Below, one piece after another: positions 4,246 through 34,657 of a DNA stretch of 34,826 nt. A program made the position numbers and the translations under genes. Numbering within the stretch: the first letter of the stretch is position 1; each line of letters opens with the position of its first letter. Location: the NCBI GenBank assembly GCA_948433885.1, contig CAOJEC010000011.1:1-34826 (forward strand), in the 5' to 3' direction. Under the pieces are notes generated by a model, which was given only the letters and a program-made list of their open reading frames with translations, searched no databases and was not told where the DNA came from. Source of the stretch: an uncultured bacterium (GTDB lineage Bacteria > Bacillota_I > Bacilli_A > RF39 > UBA660).

Positions 4246-4417
4246 ATACAAAGTTAATTTAAAGTTTAAAGAAAATGGAAAATCTTTAAATGAAACAATA
4301 ACTAATGTATTAAAAATAGAACTAGAGAAAAAGATTAATGCGACTTGCAATGTTTTTAAAAAGGAGTTACCATTCAATCATACTCATTATTCCCAAAGTG
4401 AAGGGAGTAGTAATTGA
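4238..4417 (+). CDS. Small conserved-type ORF upstream of the recombinase (59 residues)
   Basis: Starts at ATG 4238 with GGAGGT about ten bases upstream and runs to a TGA that ends at 4417, one base into the recombinase ATG (4417-4419). This arrangement strongly suggests coupled translation. The protein starts MVKYKVNLKFKENGKSLNE, with a predicted beta strand followed by a long helix. Small proteins of this general type, with a phrase like FKENGKSLNE, are in my experience found before resolvase-type recombinases in Bacillota mobile elements; a role as accessory or directionality factor is inference. An in-frame TTG at 4220 is rejected as start because it would place the SD inside the gene. 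Confidence 0.6.
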   Translation: MVKYKVNLKFKENGKSLNETITNVLKIELEKKINATCNVFKKELPFNHTHYSQSEGSSN

Positions 4418-5982
4418 TGATAGGGAATAGTAGTTTTAAAGTAGGAATATATATAAGATTATCAAGAGATGATGGAAATATTGAATCTGATAGTATTGTT
4501 AGTCAAAGAAGTTTGCTTAATCAATATGTTAAAGAAAATAACTATAATATTGTAGAAGAATATGTAGATGATGGATTCACTGGAACTAATTTTGAAAGAC
4601 CATCCTTTAAAAGGATGATTAAAGATATTGAACTTGGTAAAATTAATATGATTATCACGAAAGATATGTCTAGACTTGGTAGAGATTATATTGGAACCGG
4701 TGAACTCATTGAAAAGTATTTTCCAAATAAAAATGTAAGATATATTGCTATTAATGATGGTATTGATACTTTTATAGATAATACCAATAATGACATAGCC
4801 CCCTTTAAAGCCATAATGAATGATATGTATGCTAAAGATATTTCTAAAAAAGTTAAGACAAGTCTTCATTCAAGAATGAAAGAGGGTTTATATGTATCTG
4901 GAAGATGCCCTTTTGGTTATATGAAAGATCAATCAAATAAAAATCATTTAGTTATAAACGAACAACAAGCAGAAACTGTTAAACTAATATTTGATTTAGC
5001 ACTTAAAGGTAATACATATCATTTTATAGCACAAGAATTAACTAAAAGAAAAATTAAAACACCAGCATCTTACTACAACTATGTTTGGAATACTAAGTGT
5101 ATAAATACAAATTGTATATCACAACAATATGGAGTATGGGTTGATACAACTGTTAAAGCCATTCTCACTAATCAAATATATGTAGGAGATACAGTCCAAG
5201 GTAAAACTAAAAAAATTAATTATAAACTTAAAAAGACAGTTAAAAATAATCCTAAAGACTATATAATAGTTGAAAATACACATGATGCAATCATTGATAG
5301 AGATACTTTTAATTATGTTCAAACACTTTTACCTAAAAATGTGAAAAGACCAGAGAAGAAAAGATTTTATCTATTAGATGGACTTTTATACTGTGGAGAT
5401 TGTAAACATAGAATAACTATCCGATATCAAAATAAAACTGGTAGAAGTTATACGACTTGTGATTATTATAGAACATATTCTAAATATCATGTATGTACAA
5501 CTCATACCAATAATTATGAAGTATTAGAAAATGTTATTTTAGATAATATAAAAGATGTATGTAAAAAGTATTTAGACAAAAATAAAATAAAAGATTCTAT
5601 TGGTAATATCGAGTTTGAAGATGATACCTTAAAAATAAAAAAACAAATTGAAAGTTTAGAACTAGCAAACAATAAACTAACCGAAACATTAGATAAAAAT
5701 TATATGAATATGTTAAAAGGTATTATTGATGAAGAACAATACATAAGAATAAGTGAAAGTTTAAAAAAAGAAATAGAAAGTAATAAATCAAGTATTGATA
5801 ATATAAAAAATGAACAAACAAATGAAAATAAACTAGATAACCAAAAGATAGAAAAATATATAAATGAATTTTTATCACTTGAAAATCCAACTAGGGAATT
5901 AATAATTAATTTGGTAGAAAAGATTTATATCTATCAAGACAAAACGATAGATATTATATTTACATTTAAAAATGTTACATAA
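4417..5982 (+). CDS. Large serine recombinase (TnpX/TndX-type site-specific integrase)
   Basis: Catalyses integration and excision of the element by the serine recombinase mechanism. The resolvase N-terminal domain (about 1-155) starts KVGIYIRLSRDDG with the nucleophile Ser16 and contains FTGTNFERPSF and SRLGRDYI. The recombinase domain follows (GLYVSGRCPFGYMKD, about 150-270), then a zinc ribbon (LLYCGDCKHRIT, with later CDYY and VCTTH cysteines), then a coiled-coil C-terminus. At 521 residues from ATG 4417 it is complete and free of stops. The SD AAGGGAG is about ten bases upstream. Its stop lies within about 15 bases of the LysM junction, as expected for a recombinase next to its own attachment site. 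TnpX and TndX are the nearest characterised relatives; the exact subtype is not certain. Confidence 0.93.
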   Translation: MIGNSSFKVGIYIRLSRDDGNIESDSIVSQRSLLNQYVKENNYNIVEEYVDDGFTGTNFERPSFKRMIKDIELGKINMIITKDMSRLGRDYIGTGELIEKYFPNKNVRYIAINDGIDTFIDNTNNDIAPFKAIMNDMYAKDISKKVKTSLHSRMKEGLYVSGRCPFGYMKDQSNKNHLVINEQQAETVKLIFDLALKGNTYHFIAQELTKRKIKTPASYYNYVWNTKCINTNCISQQYGVWVDTTVKAILTNQIYVGDTVQGKTKKINYKLKKTVKNNPKDYIIVENTHDAIIDRDTFNYVQTLLPKNVKRPEKKRFYLLDGLLYCGDCKHRITIRYQNKTGRSYTTCDYYRTYSKYHVCTTHTNNYEVLENVILDNIKDVCKKYLDKNKIKDSIGNIEFEDDTLKIKKQIESLELANNKLTETLDKNYMNMLKGIIDEEQYIRISESLKKEIESNKSSIDNIKNEQTNENKLDNQKIEKYINEFLSLENPTRELIINLVEKIYIYQDKTIDIIFTFKNVT

Positions 5983-5998
5983 AAAGTGTATCTGGAGA
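5983..5998. other. Putative attR: element/LysM gene junction
   Basis: To the right, in frame with the LysM gene, GGA GAC ACT TTA TGG encodes the LysM Gly-Asp-Thr-Leu-Trp core. To the left, the sequence reads out of LysM register and is recombinase 3' flank. Large serine recombinases of the Tn4451/Tn5397 group use a GA central dinucleotide; a GA occurs here in GGAGAC. The exact crossover cannot be placed without the left end. Confidence 0.55.
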
Positions 5999-6599
5999 CA
6001 CTTTATGGACTATAGCCAAAAACAATAATATGACCGTCGACGAACTAAAAAGAATTAACAATCTAACTTCCAACTCATTGACGATAGGTCAAAGACTTAA
6101 ATTAACTAGTAAAGATCAAGCAATAACACCTACTGAACCAGAAGATACATCATCGATCTATACGGTTAAAAAAGGAGACAGTCTATATGCTATTGCTAGT
6201 AAATACGGAATGACTGTCGACGAACTTAAAAGACTCAACAATTTGACTTCAAATACATTATCTATAGGACAAAAATTGAAAATCAAAAGTGTCGAACCTC
6301 AACCAAATGAAACGACACATACTATCAAAGCTGGAGATACTCTCTATTCCATTGCTAGAACATATGGAACCACAGTCGAAGCAATTAAGCAAGCAAACAA
6401 TATGATTTCAAACAACTTGACAATAGGAAGAGTGCTAATCATACCTACTGAATCGGCATACAACACCTACACCGTTAAGGCCGGAGATACATTATACGGA
6501 ATAGCTCTTGCTAATGGAACGACTGTTGAAAAGATAAAAGATATCAACAACTTGACAAAAAATAATTTATCTATAGGACAAAAATTACTGTTACCATAA
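5991..6599 (+). pseudogene. 5'-truncated multi-LysM protein gene (right half, split by the element)
   Basis: The frame encodes four LysM repeats and no start or signal peptide. Repeat cores are GDTLWTIAKNNNMTVDELK, GDSLYAIASKYGMTVDELK, GDTLYSIARTYGTTVEAIK and GDTLYGIALANGTTVEKIK, each followed by an NN(L/M)(T/I).N.L(S/T)IG(Q/R) segment. LysM modules bind N-acetylglucosamine polymers in peptidoglycan or spore cortex. The first repeat lacks its usual TVK lead-in and begins at Gly-Asp, exactly at the element junction. ATG 6030 lies inside repeat 1, has no SD and would cut the domain, so it is not a real start. The 5' half, probably with a signal or enzymatic domain, should lie beyond the left end of the element. 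Composition is core-like, unlike the recombinase beside it. Confidence 0.85.
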
Positions 6600-6604
6600 A
6601 GCAG

Positions 6605-6630
6605 AACTCACTTGATTAAAAGTGAGTTTT
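6605..6630 (+). terminator. Terminator of the LysM gene
   Basis: AACTCACTT / AAGTGAGTT stem with a GATTAA loop and a T run, 5 bases after the LysM stop. A diverged sister copy follows the second LysM tail at 8412-8439. Confidence 0.75.
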
Positions 6631-6858
6631 ATCATACAAAACCAGCCTAATTTAAACTTTCTTTTAAAGAAAGAGTTCGAGTCCATCAAAGACCAGTCTA
6701 AGGCATCATTTTCATACTTTAATTGTCTTATTCATTCGATTGAGATCAAATATAGTAATCGAAGCTTAACTCTATTGGACAACAACTGTTAATCTTATAG
6801 TTAACAATTATTAGCTCATATCATTTAACACATTATAGAGTAATAATTCAAATTTAGC
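6631..6858. other. Non-coding stretch without a recognised gene
   Basis: No credible coding frame or SD. It contains three TCGA sites (near 6677, 6737 and 6760), so it is more core-like than the decayed ATPase that follows. A short repeat TGTTAA..TTAACA occurs near 6786-6807. It may be a degraded core gene remnant. Confidence 0.3.
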
Positions 6859-6884
6859 AGTTATTACGATTGATCGTAATAACT
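6859..6884. promoter_or_regulatory. 26-base perfect palindrome (operator candidate)
   Basis: AGTTATTACGAT and ATCGTAATAACT flank a TG centre (12-base arms, no mismatch). Its last base touches the -35 box of the promoter at 6884-6912, a typical operator position for a dimeric regulator. No T run follows, so it is not a terminator. Confidence 0.55.
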
Positions 6885-6912
6885 TTACAAGAATATTAAA
6901 TTAATATATAAT
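6884..6912 (+). promoter_or_regulatory. Sigma-A-type promoter before the ATPase pseudogene
   Basis: TTTACA, 17-base spacer, perfect TATAAT, 20 bases before the ATG at 6932. The SD AAGGAAG follows. The promoter is better preserved than the gene it drives, and may now read into the TPR gene at 7420. Confidence 0.6.
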
Positions 6913-6931
6913 ATAATTAAGGAAGATTAAT

Positions 6932-7386
6932 ATGCTTTCAAGAGAGAATTACTTATCTAAAATTAGATGTTTTTATGACTTTAATTTAATTAAAATACTA
7001 GTTGATATATATGATATTCCTGGTAAAGGAATTCTAAAACACTAAATAAGTATTATACTACCGATTTAGGAATTGCCCAAATAAAAAATAATAATCAAGA
7101 ATTTAAAAGTTATGTTGTTTTAGAAAATATTGTTTACAATGAATTAATAAATAGAAACTAAGAAATATATATAGGTAAAACAAAAAACAGTGAGGTGGAC
7201 TTTTTAGCAATGAAAGATGATAAATATGTTTAAGTGACTTATGAAATGAAAGGCAATGATAGTACCATTGAAAGAGAATTTGGAGCATATAATAAAAGAT
7301 AATTATCCAAAATATATATTTCTTTAGATAAGATAGATTTATCGTGGAATGGTATTATTCATTTAAATTGATCGGTTTTCTATTAA
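6932..7386 (+). pseudogene. Decayed AAA ATPase with DUF4143 domain
   Basis: Both ends of an AAA_14/DUF4143 ATPase are visible. The N-terminus (MLSRENYLSKI, about 37 codons) breaks off before the Walker A, and about 250 internal residues are missing. The C-terminal part resumes in another frame near 7048 with KYYTTDLGIAQ, VLENIVYNELINR, EIYIGKTKNSEVDFLA, TIEREFGAYN and ISLDKIDLSWNGIIHLN. In-frame stops at 7159 and 7231 and a further frameshift around 7290-7310 confirm decay. The family is common as lone, frequently transferred ATPases of unknown function. The SD and start are intact, so a 37-residue stub may still be translated. Confidence 0.8.
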
Positions 7387-7419
7387 GTGAAGAGTTTTGA
7401 AAGTAGAAGGTGAAGTAAT

Positions 7420-8286
7420 ATGGATAATAAACTTAATAATATGATTAATGAATTTTTAGCAAATGTCGATGTTAAAGACGCAAACGAGTTAGATGAAAAA
7501 TTACAAGAATTTACGAAAATATATAATGCTGGCGAAATTGAATATGAAAACACAGTACTAGATGATGCTTATGAACTTTTAGAGAAAGCAGAGAATGCTA
7601 AATCTAAAAAACAGGCTATTAAGTATGCAAAAGAAGCATATAATTTATGTCCTGATTGCTTTGATGCAGTATTATTTCAAATTCGTCTAGAAGACAATCC
7701 ATTAAAAAGATGGAGCCTATTGAATGAAGGATTAGAATTTGAAAAAAAGAGATTAGAAAATGAAGGATATTTTAAAAAAGATAATATAGGGCATTTTTAT
7801 GGAATATTTGAAACAAGACCATATATTAGGGGTTTATGTGCTAAAGCCGATTGTTTATTACTAGATGGTAAAGTAAAACAAGCTCGCGAAGTATGTAAAG
7901 AGATTCTTAGATTAAATAAAAACGATAATACGGGTTCTAGATATTTACTCATGGCAATATATGCTTATTTTGAAGAAGAAAGGGACATGATTAAACTATA
8001 TAAAAAATATCCGGAAGAAAACTTAGAAATGTTATTCCCATTATTTATTCTTTATTATAAACAAGGAAATGACGAAAAGGCCAGGGAATATTTAAGTAGA
8101 ATAAATAAAGCTAACCCACATTTTATAAAGTTTTTTAAAGGTACTATAAAAGAACAGGCAAATATACCACTTGGATACTATGCTCAAGGAGATTCATCAG
8201 AAGTTATAATGTATTTTAAAGGACATTATTTCCTTGTAGAAACTTTACACACCATTGATTATTACATATTAGAAAATACGCGGTAA
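7420..8286 (+). CDS. ST7-like tetratricopeptide-repeat protein
   Basis: A 288-residue soluble helical protein. The segment FETRPYIRGLCAKADCLLLDGKVKQAREVCKEILRLNKNDNTGSRYLL resembles the TPR core shared by ST7-like proteins (about residues 128-175); further TPR-like helices follow (LFILYYKQGNDEKAREYL). These are probably protein-interaction scaffolds; the partner is unknown. The SD AAGGTGA precedes the ATG. It is intact although flanked by an ATPase pseudogene and by a LysM fragment that begins 4 bases after its stop. Like the ATPase remnant it is TCGA-poor, so it was probably acquired with it. Confidence 0.65.
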   Translation: MDNKLNNMINEFLANVDVKDANELDEKLQEFTKIYNAGEIEYENTVLDDAYELLEKAENAKSKKQAIKYAKEAYNLCPDCFDAVLFQIRLEDNPLKRWSLLNEGLEFEKKRLENEGYFKKDNIGHFYGIFETRPYIRGLCAKADCLLLDGKVKQAREVCKEILRLNKNDNTGSRYLLMAIYAYFEEERDMIKLYKKYPEENLEMLFPLFILYYKQGNDEKAREYLSRINKANPHFIKFFKGTIKEQANIPLGYYAQGDSSEVIMYFKGHYFLVETLHTIDYYILENTR

Positions 8287-8290
8287 TAGA

Positions 8291-8407
8291 GGCAATACAT
8301 TATACAGAATCGTTCTTGCCAATGGAACGACTGTGGAAAAAATAAAAGATATCAACAACTTGGCAAAAAACAATCTGTCGATCGGCCAAAAATTACTGCT
8401 GTCATAA
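8291..8407 (+). pseudogene. LysM repeat fragment, duplicate of the 3' end of the LysM gene
   Basis: An orphan frame with no start: GNTLYRIVLANGTTVEKI and so on to IGQKLLLS and a stop. It is nearly the same as the last repeat of the gene ending at 6599 (GDTLYGIALANGTTVEKI), with the conserved Asp changed to Asn and mostly third-base differences at DNA level. Homology starts at the Gly codon of the Gly-Asp pair, the same codon where the upstream LysM gene is cut by the recombinase element. It is the tail of a second LysM gene or of a duplication. Confidence 0.85.
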
Positions 8408-8411
8408 AATT

Positions 8412-8439
8412 GCTCACTCGGTAAACAGTGAGCTTTTTT
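8412..8439 (+). terminator. Terminator after the LysM fragment
   Basis: GCTCACT / AGTGAGC stem followed by six T. It is the sister of the terminator at 6605-6630, so the duplicated unit included the 3' flank. Confidence 0.75.
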
Positions 8440-8623
8440 CTAATCCGTATTTTGTACTAGAGAATTCATTGTCATAAATTACCATTTTTGTTATACTCTA
8501 ATTATATTATTAGAATTTACTTATTATTTGAATAAAAAAACAAACTTACTAAAAGTCCGAACACAATTGTGAGCATTTAGGGTAAAACCTTTATTTTAAC
8601 TCTCTATGTCATATTAAATGGTA

Positions 8624-9346
8624 TTAAAAATCCTTTTCCAAATAGCTTTCTCCTGTAGCATAGTCGATCACAATTCCATCCTGAACATTGTACAAATAGA
8701 CGTTGAATTTTATTCCTTCACCATAATCTTCCACTGAATATGCTTCGAGATGTATTCCACTCGCGAGCAAGTTTTCACCTTCAAAGACAGGAGTAGCCCT
8801 ATACAATACGTGGTTCCCTGTCTTTTTTATATAATCTGCAACCTCATTTTCGAACTCCAACATGGCACCCACATTTGTTTGTCTCGTACAAGTTATAAGA
8901 TTTTGTTCATTTGCATTTTCTCCAGTCAGCTGATAGCCGATCAAATGACATCGGTTATATAGATACTTACCACTAACTATATCGTATTTGACTGTATGCC
9001 AACCAGTAGGTTTAACGCCACCTATGCTACCTCTCTCCTCAGTTGGCATAGTCTCTGGCCCCACATTTGCAAAAGCATAAGTACATCTACCTAATTTATC
9101 GAAAGACCCATAAACTTCAAACGAGGTAGTATTTTTATATTCATCCGCGAATTCGGGCTCGTTGTCGTCGATTACCACATATGCTTGATCGGAATAAGGA
9201 GGAATGTTACTCATGTCGAATGATTGGACACTTGAACTTCCACCATACAAATAGTCTTCGATCGAGCAACCGTTCACCATAAAAAGAACTATTATTATAA
9301 ATAAACTAAAAAATACAAATCGTCCAGCTTTTTTAAACTTCGTCAT
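8624..9346 (-). CDS. DNA/RNA non-specific endonuclease, secreted lipoprotein
   Basis: A 240-residue nuclease of the Endonuclease NS_2 / EndA-like type. The segment YNRCHLIGYQLTGENANEQN with LITCTRQTN carries the His (134) and Asn of the beta-beta-alpha metal centre; the classic DRGH is here NRCH, as in other Gram-positive members. The N-terminus has a hydrophobic signal and a lipobox VNGC (Cys27), so the enzyme is probably tethered outside the membrane, where it could degrade extracellular DNA or process it for uptake or nutrition. ATG 9346 is chosen because AGGTG lies just upstream; an in-frame ATG at 9364 has no SD. No competence genes are nearby. It is transcribed opposite to its neighbours. 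Confidence 0.85.
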   Translation of the reverse strand: MTKFKKAGRFVFFSLFIIIVLFMVNGCSIEDYLYGGSSSVQSFDMSNIPPYSDQAYVVIDDNEPEFADEYKNTTSFEVYGSFDKLGRCTYAFANVGPETMPTEERGSIGGVKPTGWHTVKYDIVSGKYLYNRCHLIGYQLTGENANEQNLITCTRQTNVGAMLEFENEVADYIKKTGNHVLYRATPVFEGENLLASGIHLEAYSVEDYGEGIKFNVYLYNVQDGIVIDYATGESYLEKDF

Positions 9347-9507
9347 TACTACACCTACTATCAAATAAATTATACGATATAAAATTTATAAACTAAAGAA
9401 AAAATTCTCAACCAAGCAAAATAATGATAAATCATAACATATCCTTCATATAACGTAACTCTTTAAAGAACATTCTAATTTCTCCAAAAACTTCGGTCGA
9501 ATTTTTG

Positions 9508-9536
9508 TTTACACAATATTGAACTCATGCTATAAT
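9508..9536 (+). promoter_or_regulatory. Sigma-A-type promoter
   Basis: TTTACA, 17-base spacer, TATAAT, ending 18 bases before the ATG at 9554, which implies a very short untranslated leader. Confidence 0.65.
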
Positions 9537-9553
9537 TGGTATGGTGATAAAAT

Positions 9554-10399
9554 ATGGCAACTGACAATAAAAGTGAAAATTTGAAAACGAACAAGAAAAC
9601 TGCTAAAAATAAAAATACTGAAAAATCAAACACGACAGCAAAAAAAGCAACATCTAAAACAAAAACGAAGACTAAAACTGAAAAAACTACAGCTTCCAAA
9701 TCCGCTCCTGCAACTAAAAAAACAAATACTAAAGCAGTAAATACTACTAAGAAAAACAACGGGACTAAGAAGAATGCAGGGACAAAAGTAGAAAACAAAA
9801 CTACGACGACAAATGCAAATGCAAAAAAAACAGTAGAAAAGAAGCCTGCAACCGCAAATACTTCTAAGAAAAAAAGTAATAAGACAGTTAAGAAGAATGA
9901 GACAGTTAAAACTAAAGACAATACAGTCAAAGACAAAACTCAATCGAGTATACCTAAGTTAAAAAAAGAAACTGTCGAAACGAACAAGAAGAAAGGTGTT
10001 CTCGAGTCTACTACGATTACTACCCCTGAAGTAGTGAAAGAATTGCATGTAGAAGAAAAAGTAATCGAAGTAGATCCTAGCACAGCAAAGCCTGTCGAAG
10101 ACCTTTTCGACGTAAGATCAATTTTGGGAGCTCAACTACCGACAGGTACGACAAAAGAAGATAGAAAAAAGCGTAAGAAATTCTATATGAGAGACGCCTT
10201 TGTCTTCGCTACAGTCATCCCAATCCTCGACCTCTTTGCGATGCTCTTCATCGAACCATATAAACCTTTGCTCCTCACCAACACCGAGTGGATAAACTAT
10301 GCAATCACAGTAGGAGCAGACTTCGTACTCATATTCATACTAACATACGTTTTGGATTTCTTATTTGGAGAAGAAGACGTCAAAAAAATTAATAAATAA
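9554..10399 (+). CDS. Lys/Thr/Asn-rich low-complexity protein with C-terminal membrane anchor
   Basis: A 281-residue protein in two parts. Residues 1 to about 140 are extreme low complexity, built from K, T, N and A (for example TKTKTKTEKTTASKSAP), like the basic tails of histone H1-like proteins. A more ordinary linker (about 140-210) ends in a run of KK and RK residues just before two predicted transmembrane helices (about 217-238 and 252-275), with an acidic GEEDVKK end. No enzyme motif is seen. By the positive-inside rule the basic tail should be cytoplasmic, so it may contact nucleic acid, ribosomes or acidic lipid; this is inference. Long reading frames on the opposite strand over 9475-9943 are a by-product of the AAA/ACN codon bias. 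Confidence 0.7.
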   Translation: MATDNKSENLKTNKKTAKNKNTEKSNTTAKKATSKTKTKTKTEKTTASKSAPATKKTNTKAVNTTKKNNGTKKNAGTKVENKTTTTNANAKKTVEKKPATANTSKKKSNKTVKKNETVKTKDNTVKDKTQSSIPKLKKETVETNKKKGVLESTTITTPEVVKELHVEEKVIEVDPSTAKPVEDLFDVRSILGAQLPTGTTKEDRKKRKKFYMRDAFVFATVIPILDLFAMLFIEPYKPLLLTNTEWINYAITVGADFVLIFILTYVLDFLFGEEDVKKINK

Positions 10400-10437
10400 A
10401 ATTTTAAAAACGGTACATCATATTAACAAGGTGAAAT

Positions 10438-11172
10438 ATGAAAACTGTAACTAAGATCATGAGAAGTATTGTCACTTCTCTTTTATTTTTAATCTTGACT
10501 GGAGCAATTGCCGCTCATTTAGTCTTCACAACAATTAAAGTAACAGGACCAACTTTACTAAACATGGTCGATTCTAAGGAGCTTTTGTCGATATACCTCG
10601 AAGAAGAAATCGAGGACTTATCTATCGAAGAAGTGGCCGCTAAATACATAGAAGACTACACCAATTACCTCTTCCATAAGAGAAGCTATCCGAGCCTACA
10701 AACAGTGAACTACTCCCAAGTAAGTGAAGAGAACATAGTAGAAGCCAAAAGAATCATAACGGCTTTAGAAGATAAAATGGACATGCCATACGCCTCAGTT
10801 ACTACTATTCGAGAAGCCAATAAAATACTAGCAAACGGGGCAATTTACCTTCTAATAAATGTGAGCATTTTCCTCCTATATTTATTTATAACCTTCTCGA
10901 CAGGAAGCTTCAAAAAAAGTACCATTCTCATATCCATAGCCTCTATAGTAGGCTCGATCATCACTTTAATTGCTTCATTCGTATTGATCGCGAAACTTCC
11001 ATCCATCGTCGACGAAGCGACCTTACTATACCTAAAAAATATTTTCTCAGATAGTTTTGCATCTGACCTTCGAATTGCCACTTTCTTCTACACGTCCATC
11101 GGAGTGGCCATCTTAGGATCGATTTTTACATATACCAAAATCATCACTCCACGCTTTTCCAAAACAAAATGA
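10438..11172 (+). CDS. Membrane protein of unknown function, four predicted helices
   Basis: A 244-residue protein with one helix near the N-terminus (about 10-32), an acidic extracytoplasmic loop of about 100 residues (SIYLEEEIEDLSIEEVAAKY) and three C-terminal helices (about 134-154, 162-184, 212-232). I do not recognise a family. SD AAGGTG precedes the ATG. It follows the Lys-rich gene by 38 bases and precedes the lipoprotein gene, so all three could be cotranscribed; the second start is also provided with its own -10-like element. Confidence 0.6.
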   Translation: MKTVTKIMRSIVTSLLFLILTGAIAAHLVFTTIKVTGPTLLNMVDSKELLSIYLEEEIEDLSIEEVAAKYIEDYTNYLFHKRSYPSLQTVNYSQVSEENIVEAKRIITALEDKMDMPYASVTTIREANKILANGAIYLLINVSIFLLYLFITFSTGSFKKSTILISIASIVGSIITLIASFVLIAKLPSIVDEATLLYLKNIFSDSFASDLRIATFFYTSIGVAILGSIFTYTKIITPRFSKTK

Positions 11173-24602: not shown

Positions 24603-24636
24603 GTTAACCTCGGTTGACAAATTTCCAACCGGAAAT
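24603..24636. promoter_or_regulatory. Two adjacent palindromes, operator candidates for the XRE regulator
   Basis: GTTAACC-TC-GGTTGAC (24603-24618, one mismatch) overlaps a TTGACA -35-like box (24614-24619). It is followed at once by ATTTCC-AACC-GGAAAT (24621-24636), a perfect 6-base inverted repeat. A TATAAT lies at 24662-24667. Position and symmetry suit autoregulation by the gene at 24686. Confidence 0.5.
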
Positions 24637-24685
24637 GGTAGAACGCAACTATAGAAGCGTGTATAATTTAAGGCGAGGTGAAAAA

Positions 24686-25318
24686 ATGAATCTAGGAAAT
24701 AAATTGTTGTCCCTTAGAAAACAAAAAGGACTATCACAAGAAGAAGTTGCCGATAATTTGGGAGTATCTAGACAAACAGTATCCAAATGGGAAACCGACC
24801 AAAGTACTCCCGACTTTGATAAAATAATTCCTCTTTGTGAATTATACGAAATTACAGCAGATGAACTCTTAAAGGGAGAAACATCGAAAAAAACAAAGGA
24901 AACTAGAGAATCTCTTGATGATGAACGAATGTTAACTAAGAAAGGCAAATTCATTGGCTTTGGAGTATTTCTTTACTTTCTCGCTACTGCTTTCTTTATG
25001 ATGAGTACGGAAGTGGACGGTTACTCACCGATCAATGGACTAGTCGTATTCTTGGTCATATGTGGATTAGCCACCTACTCGATAATATACGGAAATATTG
25101 TTTACAAAAATAAAAATATCAAAAATAAGAAATTACAATCCCGACTATTTCGTCCCATATTTATAATTATAAGTTTACTCGCGACGACCATCTACTTTGT
25201 AGTAAGCTTTACAACTTTCGCGTGGCACATAACTTGGCTGATATGGATAATTTATGCAGCCATAGTAGAAATAGTAAGATTGATATTCATGTTGAAGGAG
25301 GAAAAAGATGAAGAATAG
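24686..25318 (+). CDS. XRE-family regulator with four transmembrane helices
   Basis: A 210-residue membrane-bound one-component regulator. An HTH_3 domain (about 5-62: LSLRKQKGLSQEEVADNLGV, SRQTVSKWETDQSTPDFDKI) is followed by a charged linker and four helices (about 89-108, 117-138, 156-178, 181-203), suggesting direct sensing of the membrane state. The start is ATG 24686 after AGGTG; the longer frame from TTG 24614 lies in the promoter. Its end overlaps the next gene by 11 bases, so the two are cotranscribed and coupled. Confidence 0.85.
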   Translation: MNLGNKLLSLRKQKGLSQEEVADNLGVSRQTVSKWETDQSTPDFDKIIPLCELYEITADELLKGETSKKTKETRESLDDERMLTKKGKFIGFGVFLYFLATAFFMMSTEVDGYSPINGLVVFLVICGLATYSIIYGNIVYKNKNIKNKKLQSRLFRPIFIIISLLATTIYFVVSFTTFAWHITWLIWIIYAAIVEIVRLIFMLKEEKDEE

Positions 25319-26183
25319 ACACATGACAATCGCAGTTATAGTACTTCTCGTCATAGTAGTCATAATTCTCACATCTTTATTGACGATCATGTTAAAAAGA
25401 AATATACATTTTGGAACGAAGACAATTATGAAAGAAAAGATAGTGGACGAAACATATACAGAATCATTTGAAACGATTTCTATCACGGCAGATGCTGCCG
25501 ACGTCGAGATAAAAAATTCGAATGATGAAAAAATACATTTGATCATATACGGTGATGAAGAAAGGACTACCGTTTCTAGTTCATCTTCAAAACTCGAGAT
25601 CGAAACTAAAGCCAAAAGATGTTTTGGAATTTGTTTCGACATAAAGATCACTAAAGTGGAATTGTACATCCCTGAGTTTTATGAAAACGATTTAAAAATC
25701 AAAAACAAGTACGGAGATATAAAGATAGAAGATCTTCCATCCACAAACGCCGAAGTCACCGCAGATTGTGGAAACATAAATATAGACAAAATAGCCAAAG
25801 CACGTATTGAAAATAATTATGGAAATATCTCGATCGACTCTATCGACGAAGCCAAAATAGTCGCCAAATGTGGAGACATCGATATAGAAAATTTGAAAAA
25901 TGGAGATATAACCAATAATTTGGGCGACATAAAAATATCAGAAATCATAGGAAAAGTCGACATCCAAGAAGATTGTGGAAATGTAGAAATTTCATCGATG
26001 ACATTAGAAAAGGATTCTAGTATAGAAAATTCTCTCGGTGACATCACAATAGGCGATACTAACGAAATATATATCGACGCTCGAACTTCACTTGGGGATG
26101 TCAAAATAGATAACAACTTCCACCAATCGGACATTACTCTAAAAATCAAAAACAGTGCCGGAAATATCAAAGTTAGAAATTGA
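25308..26183 (+). CDS. DUF4097-type beta-repeat protein, membrane anchored
   Basis: A 291-residue protein with a single N-terminal helix (about 7-31) and an extracytoplasmic right-handed beta-helix of about 12 short turns, seen as repeated G(D/N)I.I units: YGDIKIEDL, CGNINIDKI, YGNISIDSI, CGDIDIENL, LGDIKISEI, CGNVEISSM, LGDITIGDT, LGDVKIDNN. This is the DUF4097/adhesin-like fold, also found in LiaF-type envelope-stress proteins. SD AAGGAGG is excellent. Being coupled to an XRE-membrane regulator, it is probably its sensory or effector partner, though this is inferred. Two cysteines in RCFGICF and others in the turns may form disulfides. Confidence 0.8.
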   Translation: MKNRHMTIAVIVLLVIVVIILTSLLTIMLKRNIHFGTKTIMKEKIVDETYTESFETISITADAADVEIKNSNDEKIHLIIYGDEERTTVSSSSSKLEIETKAKRCFGICFDIKITKVELYIPEFYENDLKIKNKYGDIKIEDLPSTNAEVTADCGNINIDKIAKARIENNYGNISIDSIDEAKIVAKCGDIDIENLKNGDITNNLGDIKISEIIGKVDIQEDCGNVEISSMTLEKDSSIENSLGDITIGDTNEIYIDARTSLGDVKIDNNFHQSDITLKIKNSAGNIKVRN

Positions 26184-29502: not shown

Positions 29503-30336
29503 ATGAAATTAGAAAAAATAGGAAAGTTTATTGCAGAAATGAGAAACGAAATGAATCTCACACAAAATCAGTTGGGAGAGCTTCTCGGAGGAATTGACAG
29601 GCGAACAATATCAAAATGGGAAACAGGAAAAATCGCCCCAGACATTTTGTTGTTGGAATCGATAGCAGATAGTTTAAATATAACAGTAATAGAACTCCTT
29701 AAAGGGGAAAAAAGTATTAATGAAAAAATCGAAAAAAATAACACTATGGATTCTATCAAAACATCAGATGAAATATCATATAAAAAAACGAATAGATTAA
29801 ATAATAATGAAGAAGCAATTGATAGTAAAGTCACTGATATAGGACACATAACAACAGAAGCAATTCAGTTTTATAAAAATAAAATTATAAAAATTTTCAT
29901 CAGTATTTTATTTATAATAATTACTATAATTACAATAGTAGTGCTTACTTTAAATTATTATAGATATAACATCATAAATATTGAAGGTAGAAATGAAGAA
30001 TTTTATATATCTGGAACATTGGTATATAACAAAAAAGACTATATTGTTCTAATAAATAATATTTCTTACTCAAACATTTATATGGGAACAGATAAAGAGA
30101 TAAATGCAAAATATTTAAAATTGTCACTTTTAAATAATGATGATTCACTTGTATCATATGAAATTGATGAAAACAATAATCAAAATTATATAAATGACTT
30201 ACTTAAAAATGTTTCAATAAGTTACAATAGTACAAATGAAGATAAAAAAATGTCACTCAAAAATTTAATTCTTCTTATAGAATATACTGACAAAAATGAT
30301 AGTAAGAATTCAATAACTATACCGTTAAATGGATAA
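29503..30336 (+). CDS. XRE-family regulator with one transmembrane helix and an extracytoplasmic domain
   Basis: A 277-residue protein: HTH_3 (about 6-62, NLTQNQLGELLGG and RRTISKWETGKIAPD), a polar linker, one strong helix (about 129-151) and a C-terminal extracytoplasmic domain of about 125 residues, Asn- and Tyr-rich. The layout suggests signalling from outside directly to DNA. SD TTAGGAG lies about 8 bases before the ATG. It precedes a secreted protein gene and two ABC transporter genes and may control them. No family is known for the outer domain. Confidence 0.75.
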   Translation: MKLEKIGKFIAEMRNEMNLTQNQLGELLGGIDRRTISKWETGKIAPDILLLESIADSLNITVIELLKGEKSINEKIEKNNTMDSIKTSDEISYKKTNRLNNNEEAIDSKVTDIGHITTEAIQFYKNKIIKIFISILFIIITIITIVVLTLNYYRYNIINIEGRNEEFYISGTLVYNKKDYIVLINNISYSNIYMGTDKEINAKYLKLSLLNNDDSLVSYEIDENNNQNYINDLLKNVSISYNSTNEDKKMSLKNLILLIEYTDKNDSKNSITIPLNG

Positions 30337-30465
30337 GCGTATTTTTTGCGACATCCTCGCGCACTTTCTATGCTTTATTATATATATGTTCTTTTATAAA
30401 ATGAAGTTATGACACAAAACTTTCTTAATTTTGAAAGATTTGTCATTAGAAGTGAGAAAAGAATC

Positions 30466-30867
30466 ATGAATTTAAAATTATTCTCTTTATTAACAGTAAT
30501 AACTACAGCATTTATAACTAATGTTAGTGCTGTAAGTTCATCTACCATGCAACTTGCTCAAAGCTTAACACCAGATTCAGTTATAAATACTACTGTGTAT
30601 AAACTTACTACAACAAAAAGTAATTCCGTAACTAGACCTGATACTTCAGTTATAAGTGGGTACACAGCATTGCCAAATACAATAACCGACACTGATAATG
30701 GTAGAAAAATGATAGTTACGTTGATGGAAGAAGATCAATATCCAAACGAAGATGATAAAGTTAAGGCCTATACTTGGACTTCCCTGGAAATTCAACTACT
30801 GCAACTGGCAGACTTTTTTAGTACAGTATATCTGATTACTGAGGAGCAAAAATTATGTCGACATTGA
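30466..30867 (+). CDS. Small secreted protein before the ABC genes, possibly frameshifted
   Basis: The frame starts with a clear signal peptide (MNLKLFSLLTVITTAFITNV, cleavage near VSA) and gives a Ser/Thr-rich mature part. As written it runs to a TGA at 30867, overlapping the next gene by 13 bases. The last 28 codons look non-coding: three CTG codons in a row of nine (rare here), and they cover the SD of the next gene. A single-base shift near 30783 would instead give SPGNSTTATGRLF and a stop at 30819-30821, 33 bases before the ABC start. The position before a transporter recalls bacteriocin or signal-peptide loci, but no known bacteriocin family is recognised. The SD (AGTGAG) is weak. Confidence 0.5.
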   Translation: MNLKLFSLLTVITTAFITNVSAVSSSTMQLAQSLTPDSVINTTVYKLTTTKSNSVTRPDTSVISGYTALPNTITDTDNGRKMIVTLMEEDQYPNEDDKVKAYTWTSLEIQLLQLADFFSTVYLITEEQKLCRH

Positions 30868-32735
30868 TAGGGATTAAAAATCTAAATAAAGATTATGATA
30901 AACAAAAAGTTGTAGAAAATTTTAACTATTATTTTGATGATAAGGGCTTCTATGTTCTAATGGGATCATCAGGATGCGGAAAAACAACACTAATCAATTC
31001 GATTATGGGGTTAACTGATTTTAAAGGAGAAATATCTATCAATGAAACAACTTACGAGAATCAAGTTCAATATGATAATATTAAAAATTTTACAGGTTAC
31101 ATTACCCAAGACGTACAACTAATAGAGTATTTAACCATCGAGGACAATATCAAACTGTCTTGCGCAGATGATAAAAAAATACAAGAAATTATAGAACACT
31201 TACACATTGAAAAAATTCTAAAAAATTTCCCCGGAGAAATATCAGGAGGCGAAAAACAACGAGTCGCGATCGCTCAATGTTTAGTTCAAAACAAAAAAAT
31301 AATAATTTTAGATGAACCAACTTCTTCTTTAGATAAAAAGAACAAAATAGAAATCTTTAAACTATTAAAACAGATTAGTAAAGAAAACCTCGTTATATGT
31401 GCAACACACGACAAAGAAATTATAGATTATGCATCTCACATTATCAATATATCTGAAAAATCCTTTAGAAGCATCGAAGATTTCAAAACTACCAAGATTA
31501 TCAAAAATAACAATACATTATCTAAAAGAAAAATAACACCATATATATTTAAACAGCGAAAATATAAAAATCGAGAAAAGAAATCTGAAATTATTATAAT
31601 AGTGGTGTTCATACTGTGTATTTTGACGACATTTCTATGTACAAAAGATCCCGATAAGATTTTAAATTCCATGGTAAATTTATACAATGTCAACTATCTA
31701 AGATTGGAATGTAATGATGAAAAGAAATGTTTAGAAGACTTTAAACGTAATAAAGTTATACATCATTCTTTTATTTACAATTTAAATATTCCACAAGATT
31801 TTGAAAATGAACCAGACGGGGGAACTATAAAACTCGATTATGACCCCACTTTATTAACCTTGCCATATGATAAAGAACTTTTCCCTTATCAAGATGAAAT
31901 ACTCTATGGTAGTTATTTTACAAATGAATATTCGATTATCTTAAACTATGAAGCAGCATACTCGTATAGCCTAATCAATCAGGTCGATATGCAAAATATT
32001 ATCGGAAGGACGATCCATATCGATCTATATGGAAAATCGGCGAACTTCGAAATTGTAGGCATATTTGATAAATTATCTCCTGAAGCTGATAAATATTTAA
32101 ACAGTAACATGTATTTTGAAAGTCAAGCTGAACAAACATTTATAAATGATAAATTTACAAATAACTTCGGAAAACAAGGACAGCCAAAAACGACATACTT
32201 CGTCTATTTTAAAAATAGCAAAGATCTAATAAAATATTATAAACATGGAAACAAAGACTTCATTAAAATTCAAGACATGAACGACTTCTTCGTAGAACAC
32301 AAGATTATGCTAGAGTCGGCCGCAATATATTTATATCCGGCCATTTTAATAAGTATCATAATTAGTGTAGTATTTTACTTTCAAACCAAACTTATCGAAA
32401 TAAAATATAAAGATTATACCTTCAGTATTTATGAATATTATGGATATGATATAAAAGAAGTAAAAAGAGCGTACTTTAGTTATTTAGTTTTAGATATTAT
32501 ACACAAATATTTAATTTCTTGTATATCAGCTATCATTCTATCGAAAATAATCGACGAAATTAACAACCGACTCGTATTCTTTAAATATCAACTATTTAGC
32601 ATCAATATCAATTACATAATAGGAATGCTTTTCTTACTAATATTCGTAGCAACAATAATAGACTATTTCTTCTTTAAAAAGATGAAGACTGTCGGATGGT
32701 ATGAAAACATCAAAAAAGAAAGAGATCTTATATAA
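30855..32735 (+). CDS. ABC transporter, ATPase-permease fusion (MacB/FtsX-type)
   Basis: 626 residues. ABC domain about 1-205: Walker A GSSGCGKTT (37-45), signature ISGGEKQRVAIAQ, Walker B IIILDEPTSSLD, H-loop ATHD. Then a helix (about 241-259), an extracytoplasmic domain of about 220 residues (with ILYGSYFTNEYSIILN and GRTIHIDLYGKSANFEIVGIF) and three C-terminal helices: the layout of type VII, mechanotransducing ABC proteins, here as ATPase first then permease in one chain. Such transporters handle peptides, antibiotics or lipoproteins. SD GAGGAG is strong. It probably forms a heterodimer with the next gene product. Confidence 0.88.
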   Translation: MSTLIGIKNLNKDYDKQKVVENFNYYFDDKGFYVLMGSSGCGKTTLINSIMGLTDFKGEISINETTYENQVQYDNIKNFTGYITQDVQLIEYLTIEDNIKLSCADDKKIQEIIEHLHIEKILKNFPGEISGGEKQRVAIAQCLVQNKKIIILDEPTSSLDKKNKIEIFKLLKQISKENLVICATHDKEIIDYASHIINISEKSFRSIEDFKTTKIIKNNNTLSKRKITPYIFKQRKYKNREKKSEIIIIVVFILCILTTFLCTKDPDKILNSMVNLYNVNYLRLECNDEKKCLEDFKRNKVIHHSFIYNLNIPQDFENEPDGGTIKLDYDPTLLTLPYDKELFPYQDEILYGSYFTNEYSIILNYEAAYSYSLINQVDMQNIIGRTIHIDLYGKSANFEIVGIFDKLSPEADKYLNSNMYFESQAEQTFINDKFTNNFGKQGQPKTTYFVYFKNSKDLIKYYKHGNKDFIKIQDMNDFFVEHKIMLESAAIYLYPAILISIIISVVFYFQTKLIEIKYKDYTFSIYEYYGYDIKEVKRAYFSYLVLDIIHKYLISCISAIILSKIIDEINNRLVFFKYQLFSININYIIGMLFLLIFVATIIDYFFFKKMKTVGWYENIKKERDLI

Positions 32736-32749
32736 GGAGCAAAAATCGT

Positions 32750-32788
32750 ATGAAAAAGAACCAAAAAACATACCACGAATCAAAATAG
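32750..32788 (+). CDS. Possible 12-residue ORF between the ABC genes
   Basis: ATG 32750 after AAGGAG opens a frame of 12 codons, MKKNQKTYHESK, ending TAG. The leader AGGAGCAAAAAT matches the sequence before the first ABC gene (30842-30853), so this may be a leftover of duplication, a leader peptide for the second ABC gene, or a small signal. Confidence 0.25.
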   Translation: MKKNQKTYHESK

Positions 32789-32810
32789 AGCAATAAGCGA
32801 GTTGAATTAA

Positions 32811-34595
32811 ATGATTAAATTAAAAAATATTTATAAAAATTACGGCAAAGAACGAGTACTACAAAATATCAATTTTACTTTTCAAGACAAAAAGATATAT
32901 GTCATTAAGGGAGTAAGTGGATGTGGTAAATCGACGCTTTTAGGAATAATCGCGGGTTTGAATACGGACTACACAGGGAACTATTATTTTGATAATACAC
33001 TTGTAACCAAAAAGAATATAAAAACAATAAGACAAAGAATAGGATATATAAATCAAAAAAGTATGCTTATAAGTAACATAAGTGTCTTAGATAATCTTCT
33101 CTTTATCAAAAATAATAAAACTAAAATAAAACATCTAGCCAATGAGTTTGATGTTTACCATATTCTCCACAAGATGCCAAATGAAATATCAGGTGGCGAA
33201 CGTCAAAGAATAGCTATCATAAGAGCTTTACTTACGAATCCAGATATAATAATAGCTGATGAACCTACTTCTTCATTAGACCAAGAGAATTCACTCAAAT
33301 TTGTAAATTATCTTAAAAAGATTAAAGATAGAACTATCATAATTGCAACGCATAAAGATATTTTCGATCAATGCGCAGATGAGATAATTAACTTGGATTA
33401 TGGCATTATAAAAGAAGAACATTCTCAAAAACACTTTGACGAAATCGTATCTCCTATAAAATCAGTTAACTCTCCTAAATTAAATTTTAAAAATAGCATC
33501 AAATATGTCAAAAAAAGAGCAACTAGAAACAGTTGGATTAAGAATATATTCCTAATCTTTATCTTTTTCATCATATTCGCCACCGTAGGAATTAAGCTAA
33601 ATTTCTATGATGAATATATTAAGTATTCAATGAAAGATTACCCTTATCATGTCATTGATATAGACTCTATTTCTTATGACGAACTGAGTAAAGAAGAGGA
33701 ATTTGAATTATATGAAAACTATACTTATAAAGAAGATGATTTTACTGTATATGAATATTTTCCTTATGAGGATAGTAATTTCAAAATTCCTGGAGTGTTA
33801 GAATTCGGAGAATTCCCTAAAAAAAATACACAAATAATAGTTAATAAGGAATTCATAAATTCTGTAATGCATATTGAAGACTATAAAGATGCTATAGGTA
33901 AATCTTTTATTATTAAGAATCAAGAATATGAAATAAGTGGTATAATTGCGGGTAAAGTAGAGAATACTTTTAACGAAAAAGATTGCAATGCTTACTATAC
34001 AGGAATATCTGGACCTGCTGCATTCATCGATTACGATATTATGAAGGAAATTGGTGTAAAAACAAGAGGATTTTTAGATTATAAAATGTATAAGTATGTA
34101 GGCAAGAACCAGATATACGATAAAAATTATAAATATAAAGATTTACTTTTCATAAGTATGGCATATAGAGTATATGAAAACAGAATAGCTAACACATGTA
34201 GTGTCGCCAATATGTTTGCTGACATATCGTTCATAGCTTTAACTATCCTCAGTTTAATAGGATTTATGTTCATATATAACAAAATAAATTTAGACCTTTT
34301 CTATCGTCAAAAAGAATTTGGCTACTTTATGGCTTTTGGATTAGCAAAAAAAAGAATATATTTTCTAGTTCTATACGAATACATGATAAACATAATCAAA
34401 AACTTATTAACGGGTTGTGCACTCTACTACGTTGCTTCTTGGATAGTTCATTATTACATAGGATTAAACCTTATTATTTCACCATGGTATACTACATTAA
34501 TTACTTTAATAATAATTACATATACCATTTTGGTAATAGTTCTACCACTTAGAAAATATTTAAAAAAGGATATATATAGATTAATGAATAATTAA
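32811..34595 (+). CDS. ABC transporter, ATPase-permease fusion, partner of the preceding gene
   Basis: 594 residues, same layout as its neighbour: Walker A GVSGCGKST (34-42), signature ISGGERQRIAII, Walker B IIIADEPTSSLD, H-loop ATHK (Lys replacing the usual Asp), helix about 242-261, extracytoplasmic domain, then three C-terminal helices (about 472-492, 522-545, 556-578). The paralogues probably arose by tandem duplication and form a heterodimer. The start at ATG 32811 has only a weak SD, so coupling to the upstream short ORF is possible. A terminator follows. The substrate is unknown; the small secreted protein gene just before the pair is one candidate. Confidence 0.88.
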   Translation: MIKLKNIYKNYGKERVLQNINFTFQDKKIYVIKGVSGCGKSTLLGIIAGLNTDYTGNYYFDNTLVTKKNIKTIRQRIGYINQKSMLISNISVLDNLLFIKNNKTKIKHLANEFDVYHILHKMPNEISGGERQRIAIIRALLTNPDIIIADEPTSSLDQENSLKFVNYLKKIKDRTIIIATHKDIFDQCADEIINLDYGIIKEEHSQKHFDEIVSPIKSVNSPKLNFKNSIKYVKKRATRNSWIKNIFLIFIFFIIFATVGIKLNFYDEYIKYSMKDYPYHVIDIDSISYDELSKEEEFELYENYTYKEDDFTVYEYFPYEDSNFKIPGVLEFGEFPKKNTQIIVNKEFINSVMHIEDYKDAIGKSFIIKNQEYEISGIIAGKVENTFNEKDCNAYYTGISGPAAFIDYDIMKEIGVKTRGFLDYKMYKYVGKNQIYDKNYKYKDLLFISMAYRVYENRIANTCSVANMFADISFIALTILSLIGFMFIYNKINLDLFYRQKEFGYFMAFGLAKKRIYFLVLYEYMINIIKNLLTGCALYYVASWIVHYYIGLNLIISPWYTTLITLIIITYTILVIVLPLRKYLKKDIYRLMNN

Positions 34596-34611: not shown

Positions 34612-34657
34612 ACTATAATAATAGCAATTAAACAACTTTATTATAGTTTTTATTTTT
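34612..34657 (+). terminator. Terminator of the ABC operon
   Basis: ACTATAATAA (34612-34621) / TTATTATAGT (34638-34647) stem with a 16-base loop, then a T-rich tail. Confidence 0.75.

What the first reader, a model, noticed from the sequence alone, without database searches (positions are those of the whole stretch)
29503..34595. XRE-transmembrane regulator, secreted protein and two ATPase-permease fusions as one locus
A regulator with an outer sensor domain, a small signal-peptide protein and a pair of fused ABC transporters follow each other on one strand. The order resembles peptide signalling, bacteriocin or antimicrobial-resistance loci, but the single-chain regulator and secreted protein match no family I recognise.
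Basis: partly seen in the sequence, partly recalled or inferred. Interest (0 to 1): 0.56.

Follow-up and report, generated by a model that had tools for sequence, protein, structure and literature searches.

The report
Worn-down bacteriocin-immunity-like ABC transporter locus
Next to each other in an uncultured gut-type bacterium lie a membrane-bound gene switch, the stump of a secreted protein and a matched pair of membrane pumps; relatives suggest a self-protection system against a secreted antibacterial protein, of which this copy has lost two parts.

Summary
The four genes are real, on one strand, at the stated coordinates. Both ABC proteins are MacB-like: N-terminal ATPase with intact motifs plus an FtsX-type permease. 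The regulator is an XRE HTH with one TM helix and a ~125-residue outer domain. Relatives change the picture. The secreted protein (SEC) belongs to an unnamed ~165-residue family; the window copy lacks about the last third, including its most conserved stretch. The constant partner of the ABC pair is a third protein, MEM (membrane-anchored, ~280-310 residues): it is encoded next to the pair in 11 of 12 loci and is absent only here. MEM also adjoins SEC in 11 of 11 intact SEC loci, while the ABC loci found by the ABC profile alone carry MEM without SEC. In five further proteins a MEM domain is fused behind an XRE-TM regulator. Best reading: SEC is a bacteriocin-like protein, MEM its anchored binding/immunity partner, the ABC pair clears the ligand from the membrane, and the XRE-TM protein senses it. 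The window copy is a remnant that kept regulator and transporters. Function is inferred, not shown. New variant of a known kind, seen so far only in one order of small-genome Bacilli.

The parts
29503..30336 (+). XRE-family HTH (residues 10-65), linker, one TM helix (131-149) and outer domain of ~125 residues: membrane-bound one-component regulator
   Evidence: HTH_3 2.3e-13; TM; homologues with the same outer domain next to SEC/MEM/ABC genes in L050, L055, L079, L126, L127, L132, L163
30469..30867 (+). SEC: secreted protein with Sec signal peptide, truncated (profile positions 5-113 of 164); the longer ORF begins at 30409
   Evidence: hmmsearch E 3.8e-17; no named family
30855..32735 (+). ABC1: N-terminal ATPase fused to FtsX-type permease (MacB-like half-transporter)
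32736..32810 (.). 75-nt spacer between ABC1 and ABC2; in nine related loci measured the two genes overlap by 4-7 nt
32811..34595 (+). ABC2: N-terminal ATPase fused to FtsX-type permease, partner of ABC1
34612..34647 (+). 10-bp perfect inverted repeat followed by a T-rich stretch, possible end of the operon
   Evidence: I3; not reported by the terminator scan, which needs G-C pairs

Best explanation
The locus is a reduced copy of a self-protection module of the bacteriocin-immunity type. In the full form (seen in relatives) a membrane-bound XRE regulator controls an operon of a secreted protein SEC, an anchored outer protein MEM, and a heterodimeric MacB-like transporter ABC1/ABC2. SEC leaves by the Sec pathway and acts as a bacteriocin-like toxin on close relatives. 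MEM, held to the outer face of the membrane by a TM helix or a lipid, binds SEC or the toxic ligand; the ABC pair uses ATP from inside to drive the ligand off the outer face of the membrane (mechanotransmission, as in MacB, rather than transport from the cytoplasm). The XRE-TM protein senses the same ligand with its outer domain and switches the operon on. In the window the regulator and both transporters are intact, SEC has lost its C-terminal third and MEM is gone, so the copy can at most protect or respond, not attack. SHOWN (sequence/tools): gene order, domains, intact ATPase motifs, recurrence of SEC-MEM, MEM-ABC1-ABC2 and XRE-TM neighbours, XRE-TM-MEM fusions, truncation, absence of MEM. 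INFERRED: toxicity of SEC, ligand binding by MEM, what the pump moves, heterodimer formation, direction of regulation.
For: MEM is encoded next to the ABC pair in 11 of 12 loci and next to SEC in 11 of 11 intact SEC loci. On 385 order genomes MEM (18 genomes at E<1e-10) occurs in 8 of 9 SEC genomes and 9 of 10 ABC1 genomes (p 3.5e-11 and 1e-12; among genomes not used to build the profiles 6 of 6, p 2.4e-10). ABC loci found by the ABC1 profile carry MEM without SEC, and MEM occurs in tandem copies (two in L051, three in L129), as orphan and stacked immunity genes do (the parallel is from general knowledge). Five proteins fuse an XRE HTH and TM to a MEM domain (L164 4e-53, L165 2e-49, L166 1e-15; L170 1e-15, L171 3e-17), and two of these genomes (G353, G506) also hold MEM-ABC loci, which ties MEM to sensing. 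SEC has a Sec signal peptide and occurs without the ABC pair in seven loci, so the pair is not its exporter. Of all NCBIfam models the best for both ATPases is TIGR03608, the lactococcin 972 group, though below its cut-off (148.6 and 157.7 vs 254.85 bits); among the 15 listed plasmid matches to ABC2, one opened (H4) is a lactococcin 972 operon. The permease profile finds PsdB, YtrF and MacB among solved structures. Context of relatives: a two-component system beside L083, GntR-ATPase-permease genes beside L129/L130, cell-wall hydrolase genes beside SEC-MEM in five loci.
Against: No assay of any member; SEC matches no known toxin or bacteriocin and its model has no clear structural relative. 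MEM's model is poor (mean pLDDT 61). The XRE-TM regulator is upstream of the ABC pair in only 4 of 12 loci and many members of its family lie elsewhere (9 of the 16 loci fetched for it have no SEC, MEM or ABC1/2 neighbour). SEC is with the ABC pair in only 5 of 12. The window copy itself has no MEM, so for this copy the model predicts partial function at best.
Confidence: 0.5

Rival explanations
1. Resistance module against foreign cell-envelope antibiotics (Bce/Bcr/Ytr-like): the XRE-TM protein senses a peptide antibiotic, MEM is a binding lipoprotein and the ABC pair detoxifies; SEC is an accessory (decoy or binder), not a toxin.
For: ABC loci without SEC (L126-L131); two-component system beside L083; GntR-type regulator, ATPase and permease beside L129 and L130; PsdB and YtrF are the best solved-structure matches of the permease profile; BcrR-BcrAB is a working example of a one-component membrane regulator upstream of an ABC resistance operon (PMC3968067, passages).
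Against: SEC is always with MEM and in seven loci without any ABC pair, which a pure resistance pump does not explain.
Confidence: 0.28
2. Secretion or envelope-stress module (AyrRABC- or LolCDE-like): the ABC pair pulls membrane-stuck secreted or lipid-anchored proteins off the membrane, SEC and MEM being clients or sensors.
For: MacB-family pumps include LolCDE (PMC5985334, passages); AyrRABC couples a repressor, a membrane protein and an ABC transporter to release of signal-peptide-bearing proteins (PMC5727409, passages).
Against: Narrow, patchy distribution (10 of 385 order genomes for ABC1) does not look like a housekeeping release system; MEM has no resemblance by Pfam to AyrA's DUF3169 (0 families in 9 members).
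Confidence: 0.12
3. Chance neighbours: an XRE-TM gene, an unrelated secreted protein and an ABC pair that share a strand.
For: The regulator family is widespread and only 4 of 12 ABC loci carry it; the window spacing is looser than in relatives (132 nt regulator-SEC, 75 nt ABC1-ABC2).
Against: SEC with the ABC pair recurs in L050, L051, L052 and L083, the regulator with MEM-ABC in L126 and L127 and with SEC in L050, L079 and L132.
Confidence: 0.08

Closest known systems
Lactococcin 972-type operons (bacteriocin, DUF1430 membrane protein, ABC ATPase), e.g. pneumococcal scbABC and Staphylococcus epidermidis pCSF41498_3
   Same: Sec-exported small protein followed by membrane and ABC genes; ATPases closest to TIGR03608; natural strains that keep the B and C genes but lack the bacteriocin gene (157 of 571 pneumococcal genomes, PMC11796350, passages), like the SEC damage here
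   Different: SEC is not in the lactococcin 972 family, there is no DUF1430 protein, and the transporter is two fused half-transporters with a separate anchored MEM protein
NisI / NisFEG lantibiotic immunity
   Same: Anchored outer protein that intercepts the toxin plus an ABC transporter that ejects it (PMC10257480, passages); MEM plus ABC pair has the same layout
   Different: NisFEG has a separate ATPase and other permeases; no lantibiotic synthesis genes here; homology of MEM to NisI was not tested
MacB family (type VII ABC), incl. Gram-positive YknXYZ
   Same: N-terminal ATPase fused to FtsX-type permease with a large outer domain; YknXYZ protects against the cell's own toxin SDP (PMC5985334, passages)
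   Different: Two different fused half-transporters side by side; MEM has no HlyD/adaptor domain by Pfam
BcrR-BcrAB
   Same: XRE-type membrane-bound one-component regulator encoded upstream of an ABC operon
   Different: BcrR lacks obvious extracellular domains (PMC3968067), whereas this regulator has one TM and a ~125-residue outer domain
AyrRABC secretion-stress operon
   Same: Regulator, membrane protein and ABC transporter linked to exported proteins
   Different: AyrA is a six-TM DUF3169 protein and AyrBC a split transporter (PMC5727409)

Membership tests
Lactococcin 972 bacteriocin operon | Secreted protein matches the lactococcin 972 family | tested here: not met
   No Pfam or NCBIfam match for the window SEC or its relatives
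Lactococcin 972 bacteriocin operon | DUF1430-type membrane protein | tested here: not met
   ABC1, ABC2 and MEM show no DUF1430; permeases are FtsX-type
Lactococcin 972 bacteriocin operon | ATPase above the TIGR03608 cut-off | tested here: not met
   Best-scoring NCBIfam model for both, 148.6 and 157.7 bits against 254.85
MacB-like (type VII) ABC transporter | N-terminal ATPase with intact motifs fused to permease | tested here: met
MacB-like (type VII) ABC transporter | FtsX-type C-terminal permease | tested here: met
   ABC2 47.4 bits vs 25.5; ABC1 22.5, just below; ABC2-permease profile finds MacB, PsdB, YtrF, FtsX in solved structures
MacB-like (type VII) ABC transporter | Four TM helices with a large outer domain between TM1 and TM2 | tested here: met
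   ABC1 four; the simple scan sees three in ABC2 and five in its L083 relative, so met for ABC1 and probable for ABC2
MacAB / YknXYZ with adaptor | HlyD-type adaptor protein | tested here: not met
   0 Pfam families in 9 MEM members at E 0.01; none in the window
Transmembrane transcription regulators (BcrR-like, XRE) | HTH plus TM in one chain, upstream of an ABC operon | tested here: met
BcrR proper | No obvious extracellular domain; response to bacitracin | tested here: not met
   Outer part of ~125 residues after TM 131-149; response to bacitracin not testable
Lantibiotic immunity (LanI/LanFEG) | Lanthipeptide precursor and modification genes nearby | tested here: inconclusive
   None among the window ORFs translated and read; 16 of these were scanned with Pfam and the contig ends after ABC2

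The most novel reading that the evidence does not exclude
MEM is a receptor domain shared between two jobs: as an anchored partner it hands a secreted bacteriocin-like protein (SEC) to a heterodimeric MacB-like pump, and fused to an XRE-TM regulator it reports the same ligand directly to the chromosome. SEC, MEM, the ABC pair and the XRE-TM regulators would then be an undescribed bacteriocin, immunity and one-component sensing system of uncultured gut Bacilli, partly spread as cargo of conjugative elements.
Probability: 0.3. Interest if true: 0.65.

Novelty: new variant of a known kind. Interest (0 to 1): 0.47.

Why it matters
If right, it adds a protein bacteriocin/immunity family from uncultured small-genome gut Bacilli with a feature that makes sensing directly testable: the same outer domain sits on a transporter partner and on a transcription regulator, so ligand, pump and switch can be studied with one binding assay. 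It also shows how such a locus decays: attacker and anchored partner lost, pump and regulator kept.

Tried and rejected
Peptide-pheromone reading: dropped, since SEC relatives are ~165-residue proteins and the search showed no other small ORF needed. ABC pair as exporter of SEC: dropped, because SEC has a Sec signal peptide and occurs without the pair in seven loci. Lactococcin 972 membership: tested and not met. MEM as MacA/YknX adaptor: no HlyD domain by sequence; the fold test is inconclusive because the model is poor (best Z 8.4, rmsd 2.8, 93 residues, chain 3o6u_D; other rows such as IscU and lipoate-ligase C-terminal domains score 4.7-7.6). SEC fold: best Foldseek E 9.3e-3 and best Z 6.5 (4qxl FlhE, 107 residues, rmsd 3.7) among viral jelly rolls and TNF-like folds, all tied, so only 'beta sandwich' is claimed. 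A tail-like stretch of SEC in other reading frames behind the truncation: profile E 0.9, too weak to claim. MEM remnant in the window: best E 0.8 in six frames, and none in the whole own genome (positive genomes show that the profile works). Operators: no shared inverted repeat found between regulator and SEC upstream regions; promoter-like sites are at shuffle level, 44 vs 42.0. Viral contigs: 34 pattern matches, none a relative. Plasmids with SEC and phages with MEM: no match. ABC2 on plasmids: only ATPase-length matches, no record with 80% of the query covered. MEM outside the order: 3 of 198 class genomes, all three in the window's own family; how many of the 198 lie outside the order is not shown. 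PADLOC: the regulator (HTH part) and the ABC ATPases match only through generic HTH or ATPase models; SEC, MEM and SP250 match nothing.

Literature: searches listed no paper on this gene set; the library holds open-licence papers only, so absence from print is not claimed. Papers seen as passages: PMC11796350, PMC5985334, PMC10269533, PMC3968067, PMC10257480, PMC5727409; as outline and abstract: PMC6193735; all others as search listing only.
Full report
What is there. The window is a whole contig (34826 bases, contig C11 of a 1.4-Mb, 62-contig genome, 91.4% complete). Its last 5.3 kb holds four + strand genes: an XRE-TM regulator, a small secreted protein (SEC) and two ABC proteins. Upstream genes are mostly ordinary chromosomal ones (Clp ATPase, TypA/BipA, radical SAM and a NUDIX protein by Pfam); a serine recombinase lies far upstream at 4414-5982. 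The named relatives are uncultured Bacilli, among them MAGs from roe deer reticulum, sheep rumen and rabbit.

The transporters. Both ABC proteins have an N-terminal ATPase with complete motifs and an FtsX-type permease, the MacB or type VII layout. Their ATPases score best with the lactococcin 972 group model TIGR03608 but below its cut-off. ABC1 and ABC2 are 29% identical over most of their length. In nine related loci whose spacing I measured ABC1 and ABC2 overlap by 4 nt (L052: 7 nt), in the window they are 75 nt apart.

Relatives. Twelve loci with the ABC pair were read: the window, L050, L051, L052, L083, L126, L127, L128, L129, L130, L131 and one locus split over two contigs of G429 (L125/L167). 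A gene for MEM (membrane-anchored, ~280-310 residues; N-terminal TM or, by eye, a lipobox in L052, L083 and L127) lies next to the pair in 11 of 12; the exception is the window. In L128 the MEM reading frame is interrupted. SEC is in the cluster in 5 of 12 (window, L050, L051, L052, L083); an XRE-TM regulator lies upstream in 4 of 12 (window, L050, L126, L127). Eleven loci with an intact SEC were read (L050-L053, L077-L080, L083, L084, L132; L082 and L085-L088 are named copies of five of them); all 11 carry MEM next to SEC, and seven have no ABC pair in view, though several of these contigs end nearby. The own genome has no MEM at all but is only 91% complete.

Statistics. On the same-sized sample of 385 order genomes (I take the three samples to be identical because sizes and listing order agree) strong hits were SEC 9, ABC1 10 and MEM 18 genomes. 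SEC with MEM 8 (p 3.5e-11), ABC1 with MEM 9 (p 1e-12), SEC with ABC1 4 (p 2.8e-5). Without the genomes used to build the profiles, ABC1 with MEM is 6 of 6 (p 2.4e-10). I counted as strong E<1e-10 for MEM and E<1e-30 for SEC and ABC1; weaker rows (18 further genomes at E 1e-3 to 1e-6 or so, 37, 7) were left out as generic N-terminal or FtsX matches.

SEC is damaged in the window. The family profile (11 intact members) matches residues of the window protein only at positions 5-113 of 164 (E 3.8e-17). The lost part contains the stretch I[DE]SxxDxxxEL, present in all 11 intact members. The predicted structure of the L083 SEC (mean pLDDT 80.9, strands 138-147 and 164-169 at the C-terminus) puts two strands of the sheet in the lost part, so the window protein should not fold like its relatives.

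MEM links pump and switch. A MEM profile made from 20 sequences finds MEM domains behind an XRE HTH and a TM helix in L164, L165, L166, L170 and L171. G353 and G506 hold both such a fusion and MEM-ABC loci. L163 has an XRE-TM gene followed at once by MEM. This is the strongest hint that MEM is a ligand-binding outer domain and that regulator and transporter answer the same ligand. The short outer domain of the window regulator is a different domain: no MEM-profile match.

Mobility and context. L079 lies next to a type IV coupling protein gene and L055, the paralogous locus in the own genome, behind a TraG-like ATPase; L132 follows genes that look like conjugation genes by eye. SEC-MEM loci L053, L078, L079, L084 and L132 have a peptidoglycan-binding or Rv2525c-like glycoside-hydrolase gene nearby. 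The own genome's second locus (G000:C31, L055) has XRE-TM, two secreted proteins, an ATPase and two permeases in a row.

Mechanism. From MacB-family knowledge (PMC5985334, passages) such pumps act on ligands at the outer face of the membrane. With an anchored partner the layout is that of NisI plus NisFEG (PMC10257480), and loss of the attacker with retention of the protective genes has a natural parallel in scbABC, where 157 of 571 pneumococcal genomes keep only scbBC (PMC11796350); there too the B and C functions are unproven. The one-component regulator upstream of the ABC genes resembles BcrR-BcrAB in layout (PMC3968067). Shown are gene content, domains and associations; toxicity, binding, substrate and regulation are inferred.

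Verdict. The novelty is a three-part SEC-MEM-ABC module with a MEM domain shared by a transcription regulator, known to me from no paper found in seven searches. The window copy is a degraded example.

Noticed in passing
L055 (G000:C31:5000-17361), 5531-10732: Second XRE-TM locus in the same genome: XRE-TM regulator, 259-aa secreted protein, 134-aa secreted protein, ATPase and two FtsX-type permeases, directly after conjugation-type genes (TraG P-loop).
   Followed up: partly
L164 6759-7985, L165 7904-9043, L166 7557-8975, L170 1402-2769, L171 5220-6605: XRE HTH, TM helix and MEM domain fused in one chain.
   Followed up: yes
L050 10496-11242 and 2390-3133, L079 5262-6029, L055 6378-7157: An unnamed ~250-residue secreted protein family directly follows XRE-TM regulators.
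   Followed up: no
L079 6202-8586, L084 2807-5206, L078 11048-12451: Large Rv2525c-like glycoside-hydrolase proteins, the first two also with a peptidoglycan-binding domain, beside SEC-MEM genes.
   Followed up: partly
window 32736-32810: The ABC1-ABC2 spacer contains a good ribosome-binding site and a 12-codon ORF, much like the sequence before ABC1; origin unclear.
   Followed up: no
window 24614-26183: XRE-type regulator gene overlapping a gene for a DUF4097 (toastrack) membrane protein, another regulator/membrane pair on the same strand.
   Followed up: no
L129 1086-4279 and L130 6922-10115: GntR-type regulator, ATPase and large permease genes immediately upstream of MEM-ABC1-ABC2, resembling Ytr-type antibiotic-response operons (resemblance recalled, not tested).
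   Followed up: no
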